Below are positions 52,145 through 54,649 of a DNA stretch of 54,691 nt, piece by piece. Below the pieces are notes generated by a model. That model did no database searches and was not told where the DNA came from. It worked only from the letters and a program-made list of their open reading frames with translations. Source of the stretch: a bacterium. GTDB lineage: Bacteria; Hydrothermota; UBA3073; JACQXS01; JAGMCI01. Location: contig JASEGA010000014.1 in the NCBI GenBank assembly GCA_030018315.1, positions 1 to 54,691 of the forward strand, written 5' to 3'. The translations under genes were made by a program, and so were the position numbers. The first letter of the stretch is position 1. Each line of letters begins with the position of its first letter.

Positions 52145-52178
52145 TGTCATTGCGAGGAGCAAAGCGACGAAGCAATCT
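52145..52178. repeat. TGTCATTGCGAG...GAAGCAATCT element at the 3' end of the exosortase gene
   Basis: A copy of the TGTCATT family. Read on the minus strand it encodes KIASSLCSSQ and then the TGA stop of the exosortase gene. Confidence 0.8.
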
Positions 52179-53226
52179 TGTCTCTAAATATTCTCTTTTT
52201 ATACAACAAAATAATCCACAGAGCGAATGGAATTACTGCCATAATGAGGTCAATAGTGTTCAGGATTGGAGTTGGTATACTTAAGTGACGAGAAAATGCA
52301 TAGCTGAACGGGATGACTATTCTGATGAAGTGCAATATGAAAAGTATGAATAACCCTATAAAAACTACCTTCAATCTTTCTATTCTTTTAAGGCCATGTA
52401 CTGCTAAAACCAATGCCATAAAAGGTACTATGTTAAATGCTATTGATTGTACTCCATGCATTGTTACTTCTTCCCCCCTGTAGCTAAAGATTATTTCTTT
52501 AGGAAGATTTAGTGCATGGTCAAGTCTGAGACCTGCACTACTTATCTTAAATCCTATTAGCCTGAGAAAACTGCCACTTATTTGGACTAAGAACCTTATA
52601 TAATACTTAAGTGCCATAAACCAGACAAATAGGGTAATTGAAGAATAAAACAAGAATTTACCTATAAATAGGAAAATACCTTCCCTAATCTTCTTCTTTG
52701 TAATGTAGTTTATCCACCATATCCACATAGCTATTCCAAAGATAATAAAGAATGCCGGCCATAGGTAGTGGTGTACAATATCAAATGCTTTTGGTCCAAT
52801 CAGCTGCGCCCATGCTAATAGACCAAGCCGAATAATATTCACTGCATAAAGGATAGTAGTCCCTAATATAAGACCTATTCCTTTATTTCTAAGAGTAGTT
52901 GGGTATGCCAGAACACTTGCAAAATATACTACAAGACAAAGTAGATTTGTACATACAGGCCCTATATTTAGAGAGGTTCCGGTATATGTTACAATATTTT
53001 CACTTACCTTAGCATCTATTCTAACCAATTGTAACACTGACCCAAAAGCTCTTGCAGTTGTGGCTGCATAGAACATTAGAGCACGGCTATCCCCATACAA
53101 GCAGTATAAGTAGTAGAGTGGGACTAAAATAATAAAAAAAAGGAGACAAAATTTAAATGTCTCCTTCTCTTTTAATATTTTCTCTTTGATACGGAGTGTA
53201 ATATTATGTAAAGGATGAGCAAGCAT
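52147..53226 (-). CDS. Exosortase/archaeosortase-family protein with a duplicated, non-catalytic second lobe
   Basis: 359-residue polytopic membrane protein. The first lobe (about 22-178) has the transpeptidase-like triad of exosortases: Cys92 in GPVCTNLLC, Arg133 in NIIRL and His152/153 in HHYLWP. The second lobe (about 182-345) repeats the pattern 168 residues later: Y249-x-G251 for Y81-x-G83, Gln260 for Cys92 and Arg302 for Arg133. It thus appears to be a degenerate internal duplication lacking the nucleophile. Exosortases cut and process C-terminal PEP-CTERM-like tails. The upstream gene encodes a protein with such a tail. The last ten residues come from a dispersed repeat. Confidence 0.82.
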   Translation of the reverse strand: MLAHPLHNITLRIKEKILKEKETFKFCLLFFIILVPLYYLYCLYGDSRALMFYAATTARAFGSVLQLVRIDAKVSENIVTYTGTSLNIGPVCTNLLCLVVYFASVLAYPTTLRNKGIGLILGTTILYAVNIIRLGLLAWAQLIGPKAFDIVHHYLWPAFFIIFGIAMWIWWINYITKKKIREGIFLFIGKFLFYSSITLFVWFMALKYYIRFLVQISGSFLRLIGFKISSAGLRLDHALNLPKEIIFSYRGEEVTMHGVQSIAFNIVPFMALVLAVHGLKRIERLKVVFIGLFILFILHFIRIVIPFSYAFSRHLSIPTPILNTIDLIMAVIPFALWIILLYKKRIFRDKIASSLCSSQ

Positions 53227-53564: not shown

Positions 53565-54596
53565 TTATGCTAATGCCTTTCTCTTCCTTAAGTAGATTAT
53601 AGTCACGAAGCAAATTAAAACTACAAATAAGATAAATGCTGGAGCATGAGGAAAGAATGGAACAAGAGCACTCGTAAATGCGACAGAATCGTATGCAGTT
53701 GTTCTAATAGAGTCGCCATTTAGGTAATATACATAGGCTACATGAGCATAACTGCTCGCTACACCATGAAATACATGCACACTGTCATCTGAGTTAGCAC
53801 TGTCAACTGGTGTACCTGCCCTATTTAACTTAAAGAAATAGTCTGACTTACCTTGTGTATCATTAGTAAAGCGCCTGCAAGCCACTTTTACACTATCAGG
53901 CTTTGACCAAATAAGTGTCATCCCCTTAGGATTGCCACAAAGAGTATATAGCTTCTCTTCAGTTGGGTTATAACTTGTATCACCTAAGGCGTCTCCATTT
54001 CTAAATCTCACTTTGTAACCATATTGAGTATTTTCGTTTAACCCACTATCAGTATAAGTGTAAACACCAGTTAGCCAGCCACTTGAAGTCCCACCTCCTC
54101 CATCTGTAATACACTGAAACTGTGAGCCTGTAGAGTCAGCAGTGCTATTAGGTGGCTCTGTCACTGATAGAGTTATTTTAGCAGAGTCGTTTGCGGTTTG
54201 GGTGAATTCGGCATCTGTTGGTGGACCAATAAGGGTGTAACAAGTGTCTTTGTTTGACCAGCTAGTGTCTACATTAGCACTACACGCAGCAGCTACCCAG
54301 ATGAACTGAGTATTTTCTGTTAATTCTGAGAACTTTGCCTTTGTCACTGTATCTACTGTCACATTTGCACCTACTGAGTCTACTTTTGTAGTTGAGTCTT
54401 TCTTGAATATAAAAAAATGTGTCTCATTATCTGAGTTGTCTGTCCATGAGCATCGTATCGTAGCAGTATCCAATGCAGTCATACTAAAGTTTGTAGGCGC
54501 TGCTGGAGCTCCACGTGTCTTAGCAAAAACACTATCCACTTTAACGCCTATAGTGGCTATCATAGCTACTATAACTCCAAAAATACTCTTTCCCAT
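53565..54596 (-). CDS. Exported fibronectin-III-like protein with C-terminal exosortase-type sorting tail
   Basis: 343 residues. Begins MGKSIFGVIVAMIATIG, a signal peptide. The ATG at 54596 is chosen because a strong GGAGG site lies four bases upstream and the ATG at 54614 falls at the predicted transcription start. Three FN3-like beta domains follow (about 25-120, 120-215, 215-305), with repeated LTENTQF/LNENTQY turns. The tail is tripartite: FFPHAP, a hydrophobic span of about 16 residues and a basic end RKRKALA. That matches the logic of PEP-CTERM signals with an unfamiliar motif. Probably the substrate of the adjacent exosortase. Confidence 0.8.
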   Translation of the reverse strand: MGKSIFGVIVAMIATIGVKVDSVFAKTRGAPAAPTNFSMTALDTATIRCSWTDNSDNETHFFIFKKDSTTKVDSVGANVTVDTVTKAKFSELTENTQFIWVAAACSANVDTSWSNKDTCYTLIGPPTDAEFTQTANDSAKITLSVTEPPNSTADSTGSQFQCITDGGGGTSSGWLTGVYTYTDSGLNENTQYGYKVRFRNGDALGDTSYNPTEEKLYTLCGNPKGMTLIWSKPDSVKVACRRFTNDTQGKSDYFFKLNRAGTPVDSANSDDSVHVFHGVASSYAHVAYVYYLNGDSIRTTAYDSVAFTSALVPFFPHAPAFILFVVLICFVTIIYLRKRKALA

Positions 54597-54620
54597 CTTA
54601 CCTCCTTTTTTCATATTTTA

Positions 54621-54649
54621 ATAATATACTTTGTTAAAAAATTTGTCAA
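54621..54649 (-). promoter_or_regulatory. Promoter of the FN3-like gene with upstream AACAAAGC cassette
   Basis: TTGACA (54649-54644) and TATTAT (54626-54621) are 17 nt apart. ATTCAACAAAGC lies 7 nt upstream of CTTGACA, as at rsmD and ribE. The leader is about 18 nt and includes a Shine-Dalgarno site. Confidence 0.7.

What the first reader, a model, noticed from the sequence alone, without database searches (positions are those of the whole stretch)
52147..53226. Two-lobed exosortase with a dead second half
Seen directly: motifs of the catalytic lobe (Y81-x-G83, Cys92, Arg133) recur at a near-constant offset of 168-169 residues (Y249-x-G251, Gln260, Arg302), with similar hydrophobic spacing between. 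The second lobe lacks the cysteine. Known: exosortases are single-lobed with a Cys-Arg-His site. Inference: an internal duplication has produced a pseudo-dimeric enzyme in which the inactive lobe may bind the substrate tail or regulate the active lobe.
Basis: partly seen in the sequence, partly recalled or inferred. Interest (0 to 1): 0.75.

Follow-up and report, generated by a model that had tools for sequence, protein, structure and literature searches.

The report
Exosortase fused to its dead paralog
A bacterial membrane enzyme thought to sort surface proteins carries a second, catalytically dead copy of itself; in most other bacteria this dead copy is a separate neighbouring gene, which suggests that small exosortases may work as a pair of one live and one dead subunit.

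Summary
The ORF (359 aa, minus strand, a WOR-3 genome) is real and two-lobed. Residues 23-178 are an exosortase/archaeosortase with intact Cys92, Arg133 and His152. Residues about 181-345 match no Pfam or NCBIfam model directly. They do belong to a family of four-helix membrane proteins normally encoded as a separate ORF right after a short exosortase (46 pairs located in fetched loci). That family includes NCBIfam's 'exosortase H-associated membrane protein' (NF041730). Profile-profile comparison shows the family is homologous to the exosortase lobe along its whole length (E about 1e-9; shuffled and reversed controls far weaker). The second lobe is therefore a degenerate exosortase paralog. 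The duplication is ancient and the fusion secondary: the lobe was not copied within this gene. And the residues cited for the second lobe (Tyr249, Gly251, Gln260, Arg302) are not conserved in its family; Trp202, Tyr209, Asn265, His299, Pro333 and Trp337 are. Fused forms occur in 3 of 635 genomes searched, in two phyla. The gene lies downstream of an FN3 protein with a unique C-terminal sorting-type tail. No usable structure was obtained, so how the dead lobe acts is inferred.

The parts
52147..53226 (-). Two-lobed exosortase gene, 359 codons plus stop
52693..53160 (-). Catalytic exosortase lobe, residues 23-178, four predicted membrane helices
   Evidence: TIGR04178 38.4 bits, cut-off 23; invariant Cys, Arg and His; hydropathy
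52951..52953 (-). Cys92, predicted nucleophile (50/50 sequences)
52828..52830 (-). Arg133, catalytic Arg (50/50 sequences)
52771..52773 (-).
52681..52698 (-). Junction between lobes, residues 177-182 (KKIREG within KKKIREG); no Met or internal stop
52192..52686 (-). Dead second lobe, residues 181-345, four predicted membrane helices; member of the XrtH-associated partner superfamily
   Evidence: partner ORFs found by profile; hhalign to the exosortase family; hydropathy
52447..52449 (-). Gln260, aligned with Cys92; variable in the partner family
52432..52434 (-). Asn265, conserved in 39/47 partner sequences (N-x-x-P motif)
52330..52332 (-). His299, conserved in 37/47; aligned with Asn130 of the catalytic lobe
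52600..52602 (-). Tyr209, conserved in 46/47 partner sequences
53565..54614 (-). Probable dedicated substrate: protein with FN3 domain and a C-terminal motif-helix-basic tail. The start is more likely the second ATG at 54596, preceded by GGAGGT, giving a signal peptide MGKSIFGVIVAMIATIGVKVDSVFA
   Evidence: fn3 E 4.4e-9; Heimdall-CTERM 18.6 bits, below the 24 cut-off; tail found nowhere else in the genome; start codon and signal peptide read from the sequence
53568..53657 (-). Sorting-signal-like tail FFPHAPAFILFVVLICFVTIIYLRKRKALA

Best explanation
The gene encodes a short (XrtH/ArtB-like) exosortase fused at its C-terminus to its usual partner, a four-helix membrane protein that is itself an ancient, catalytically dead paralog of exosortase. 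Shown by sequence: the live lobe, the homology of the second lobe, its membership in the family of adjacent partner ORFs, the lack of a catalytic site, and recurrent fusion. Inferred: the two lobes insert in parallel (each four helices, N-in/C-in) and pack as a pseudo-two-fold heterodimer with both periplasmic faces on the same side. The live lobe uses Cys92, Arg133 and His152 to cut, and perhaps transfer, the C-terminal signal of the FN3 protein encoded just upstream. The dead lobe stabilises the enzyme and probably forms one wall of the cleft that receives the substrate's transmembrane tail, with Asn265, His299 and Tyr209 as likely contact or packing residues.
For: Live lobe: TIGR04178 above cut-off; C92, R133 and H152 each 50/50. 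Second lobe equals partner: a profile from the two fused WOR-3 proteins finds separate ORFs next to exosortases in other genomes, e.g. E 1.6e-15 for G204 and 1.3e-11 for G387; 46 adjacent pairs, mostly overlapping or within a few bases. Part of the family is NCBIfam XrtH_assoc (9 of 15 members). Lobe homology: hhalign probability 96.4-96.7%, E 1.2e-9 to 3.6e-10, 150-168 colinear columns; 91.9% with the fused proteins left out; controls far lower. A partner-only profile hits exosortases at E 2e-9 while the best reversed decoy is 1.3. Co-divergence of the two families: Mantel r 0.83, 0 of 5000 permutations. Recurrent fusion: window, G129 and G565 in another phylum. Topology: four helices per lobe with positive cytoplasmic loops. 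Dedicated substrate: one exosortase and one such tail in the genome.
Against: No usable structure: full-length pLDDT 47, pTM 0.33; second lobe alone pLDDT 71 but pTM 0.35. NF041730 itself does not hit the window lobe; the link is through the wider family. Co-divergence may partly reflect species history. Nothing here tests binding, activity or substrate.
Confidence: 0.8

Rival explanations
1. Recent tandem duplication inside this gene followed by loss of the active site.
For: The two halves of the same ORF align, and R302 falls on R133.
Against: The second lobe is closer to separate partner ORFs of many phyla (up to 30% identity; 28-29%) than to its own first lobe (18% over 146 columns), and the lobe families are related even without the fused proteins.
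Confidence: 0.04
2. The second half is an unrelated four-helix accessory protein, and its resemblance to exosortase is membrane-protein composition.
For: Identity is only 15-18%; no structure confirms the fold.
Against: Shuffles that keep local composition reach score 21 against 47.5; reversed profiles 11.7; unrelated membrane ORFs of the same loci score at most 16; the alignment is colinear over 150 columns with matching helix order and loop charges.
Confidence: 0.07
3. The second lobe is not dead but uses other residues (Asn265, His299, Tyr209) for a reaction of its own, such as attaching the cleaved protein to its acceptor.
For: These polar residues in or near membrane helices are conserved in 37-46 of 47 sequences.
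Against: No nucleophile is conserved at the position equivalent to Cys92. H299 is replaced in 10 of 47 and N265 in 8 of 47, more than expected for catalytic residues; G129 lacks the usual N and H.
Confidence: 0.08
4. The fusion is an assembly or sequencing artefact of two overlapping genes.
For: In many genomes the two ORFs overlap or lie a few bases apart, so one indel could join them; the window comes from a fragmented assembly.
Against: The junction reads smoothly without a Met; the same architecture occurs in G129 and in G565, a genome with a single-contig assembly.
Confidence: 0.03

Closest known systems
Exosortase H / archaeosortase B / exosortase X (TIGR04177, TIGR04144, NF046081)
   Same: First lobe aligns over the full length of each model with Cys, Arg and His in place
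   Different: Scores 65-69 bits against cut-offs of 86, 150 and 170; carries a second fused lobe
Exosortase H-associated membrane protein (NCBIfam NF041730)
   Same: Partner ORFs of this family's superfamily match the second lobe and sit beside exosortases
   Different: Model does not hit the window lobe directly; usually a separate gene; not described in NCBIfam's name line as an exosortase paralog
Exosortase F system-associated membrane protein (TIGR04127)
   Same: Also a small membrane protein encoded next to a short exosortase
   Different: No detectable relation to the second lobe in a single-sequence test
Exosortases fused to other domains, e.g. exosortase E/protease (TIGR04162) and XrtA/XrtD with EpsI-like domains (the latter from general knowledge)
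   Same: Exosortase with an extra C-terminal part
   Different: Those extra parts are unrelated to exosortase; here the extra part is a dead homolog

Membership tests
Exosortase/archaeosortase superfamily (TIGR04178) | Signature model above its curated cut-off | tested here: met
   38.4 bits, cut-off 23, residues 87-172
Exosortase/archaeosortase superfamily (TIGR04178) | Cys, Arg and His catalytic residues in the live lobe | tested here: met
   C92, R133, H152, each 50/50 in the family alignment
Exosortase/archaeosortase superfamily (TIGR04178) | A cognate C-terminal sorting-signal protein in the genome | tested here: inconclusive
   FN3 protein with motif-helix-basic tail upstream; its tail matches no known CTERM model above cut-off
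Exosortase/archaeosortase superfamily (TIGR04178) | Cleavage or transfer activity | not testable with these tools
   needs experiment
Exosortase H (TIGR04177) | Model above cut-off and IPTL-CTERM substrates | tested here: not met
   65.7 bits (69.2 for the lobe alone), cut-off 86; tail is not IPTL-type
Archaeosortase B (TIGR04144) and exosortase X (NF046081) | Models above cut-off | tested here: not met
   65.5 and 65.7 bits against 150 and 170
XrtH_assoc (NF041730) | Model above cut-off on the second lobe | tested here: not met
   No hit at E up to 10 in the own genome or at E up to 1 by hmmscan
Wider partner superfamily that includes XrtH_assoc | Profile relation to partner ORFs adjacent to short exosortases | tested here: met
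   a window-clade profile reaches all 50 partner ORFs at E up to 10, most of them strongly, including L021, whose genome place is the one over the NF041730 cut-off
Degenerate exosortase paralog (pseudoenzyme) | Homology to exosortase with loss of catalytic residues | tested here: met
   hhalign E about 1e-9 over 150-168 columns; Cys and His positions not kept; Arg only in the window
Degenerate exosortase paralog (pseudoenzyme) | Same three-dimensional fold | tested here: inconclusive
   Models too poor: pTM 0.33 and 0.35; helix count and order agree

The most novel reading that the evidence does not exclude
Short exosortases in general act as obligate heterodimers of a live and a dead paralogous subunit: the 'exosortase H-associated membrane protein' and its relatives are pseudo-exosortases, and the fused proteins are single-chain versions of that complex.
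Probability: 0.5. Interest if true: 0.75.

Novelty: new variant of a known kind. Interest (0 to 1): 0.6.

Why it matters
No solved structure in the Protein Data Bank copy matches either lobe family by sequence, and the role of the XrtH-associated membrane protein is not stated by its NCBIfam name. Recognising that protein as a dead exosortase paralog, with three natural fusions to the live enzyme, turns an unexplained neighbour gene into a testable subunit. It also offers single-chain constructs with fixed 1:1 stoichiometry, which could make structural work on this enzyme family easier.

Tried and rejected
Both judged too poor for superposition or fold search, so neither was done. (2) More sequences for a deeper alignment from viral contigs: three scans found no relative and two alignments were too diverse to scan with. 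(3) Plasmid and phage collections: no match. (4) The single genome-contig scan returned only the G129 contig. (5) The XrtF-associated protein as a second example of a dead lobe: no relation in a single-sequence test. (6) L071 and L072 looked fused in the table but are two ORFs with a stop between; L079 (300 aa) runs into a stretch of N and is not evidence of fusion. (7) Whether the window and G129 fusions share one origin: the best tree separates them, but the test does not reject a single clade (p-AU 0.075). (8) Papers: searches for XrtH, exosortase H/IPTLxxWG and exosortase with WOR-3 gave nothing relevant; the library lacks most subscription papers.

Full report
Observation. The ORF at 52147-53226 lies on the minus strand and encodes 359 aa; read on the plus strand the stretch is full of stops. 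The window is contig C14 of a 1.95-Mb genome (96.5% complete); a relative in the same phylum is titled candidate division WOR-3, and the window carries Omp85/TamB-like genes that suggest a two-membrane cell (reading of the ORFs, not tested by a family search).

First lobe. Residues 23-178 match many exosortase and archaeosortase models; the superfamily signature TIGR04178 is passed (38.4 bits, cut-off 23), while XrtH, ArtB and XrtX fall short of their own cut-offs. Across 50 relatives Cys92, Arg133 and His152 are invariant.

Second lobe. It matches nothing directly in Pfam or NCBIfam. The phylum holds one other two-lobed protein, in G129 (307 aa). A profile of these two, run on 390 genomes, found short exosortases whose immediate downstream ORF matches the second-lobe half of the profile. 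Extraction of the ORFs gave 46 adjacent same-strand pairs; gaps between exosortase stop and first possible partner start run from -113 to +100 bases, most of them negative. Of 15 second-lobe and partner sequences, 9 match NCBIfam NF041730, exosortase H-associated membrane protein; the window lobe itself does not. A profile from the window-side clade alone recovers the more distant partners, including L021, whose genome place passes the NF041730 cut-off.

Homology of the lobes. hhalign between exosortase and partner families: probability 93.0%, 146 columns with 16 sequences a side; 91.9% with the fused proteins removed; 96.7% and E 3.6e-10 with the tool's alignments; 96.4% and E 1.2e-9 with 50 and 47 sequences. 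These are E-values for single comparisons, so controls matter more: column shuffles in blocks of 10 or 20 reach 21.0 against 47.5, reversed profiles 11.7, and unrelated membrane ORFs of the same loci at most 16.4. A partner-only HMM hits exosortase ORFs at E 2e-9 while the best reversed decoy stands at 1.3; the reverse search, exosortase profile to partners, is weak (best E 0.0021, with decoys at 0.15). The alignment puts C92 on Q260, R133 on R302 and N130 on H299.

What is conserved. In the second-lobe family the strongly conserved positions are W202 (45/47), Y209 (46), L272 (46), P333 (45), W337 (44), G291 (41), N265 (39), H299 (37) and P268 (36). Y249 (3), G251 (4), Q260 and R302 (1, the window itself) are not. 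The family as a whole therefore has no exosortase-type active site, and the Arg match in the window is best read as chance.

Fusion and history. Long match tables were cut, so a few more could have been missed. In a careful tree of 43 concatenated pairs the window groups with the split pair of G410 (96/89), away from G129, but a single clade of the two WOR-3 fusions is not rejected (p-AU 0.075; G129 is a long branch). The two lobe families diverge together (Mantel r 0.83, no permutation of 5000 above 0.27); species history contributes to this and was not removed.

Surroundings. Directly upstream on the same strand is a protein with an FN3 domain and a tail FFPHAP, hydrophobic helix, RKRK. Its start is probably the second ATG (54596), preceded by GGAGGT, which gives a standard signal peptide (sequence). 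The tail falls below the cut-off of its best CTERM model (18.6 against 24 bits) and occurs once in the genome, as does the exosortase. This looks like a one enzyme, one substrate pair; that the FN3 protein is the substrate is inference from position and tail.

Mechanism. Each lobe has four hydrophobic helices with positive loops at the same places: net charges +3, +2, +3, +3, +4 on the predicted cytoplasmic side against +1, 0, +3, +1 outside. An even helix number puts both lobes in the same orientation, so the simplest model is a parallel pseudo-dimer with one active site on the outer face of the membrane. That the dead lobe stabilises the live one and helps hold the substrate helix is inferred from obligate neighbourhood, co-divergence and recurrent fusion; no structure or experiment supports the details.

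Limits. The genomes are mostly unnamed. The literature search was confined to an open-access library and found no paper on XrtH, so whether the paralogy has been noted elsewhere is unknown.

Noticed in passing
L005:1459-1716 (-), G129 contig C55: A stray second-lobe-like ORF (85 aa, 45 bits to the partner profile) beside a protein with a PGF-CTERM-like tail; its first helix appears in another frame, so it is frameshifted or a fragment, and no live lobe was seen next to it.
   Followed up: partly
L109:929-2146 (+), genome G565: A third fused live-plus-dead exosortase, in another phylum, in a genome that also carries split pairs and a protein with an IPTL-CTERM tail.
   Followed up: partly
52152-52177: GCGAGGAGCAAAGCGACGAAGCAATC, which resembles a repeat known from other bacterial genomes (from memory), overlaps the 3' end of the gene and encodes its last residues; it occurs once in the window, the rest of the genome was not searched.
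   Followed up: partly
54596-54649: A sigma-70-like promoter (TTGACA-17-TATTAT, 11 of 12) ends 7 bases before the annotated ATG of the FN3 protein; with the second ATG and its GGAGGT the spacing makes better sense. The number of such sites in the region is no more than chance.
   Followed up: partly
L020:828-1577 (-) and L024:1904-2650 (+), genome G371: Some partner proteins end in a SEC-C metal-binding motif, absent from the window lobe.
   Followed up: no
L018:1241-2227 (-), genome G285: An exosortase with a long insert between its first helix and the catalytic part (328 aa), still followed by a separate partner.
   Followed up: no
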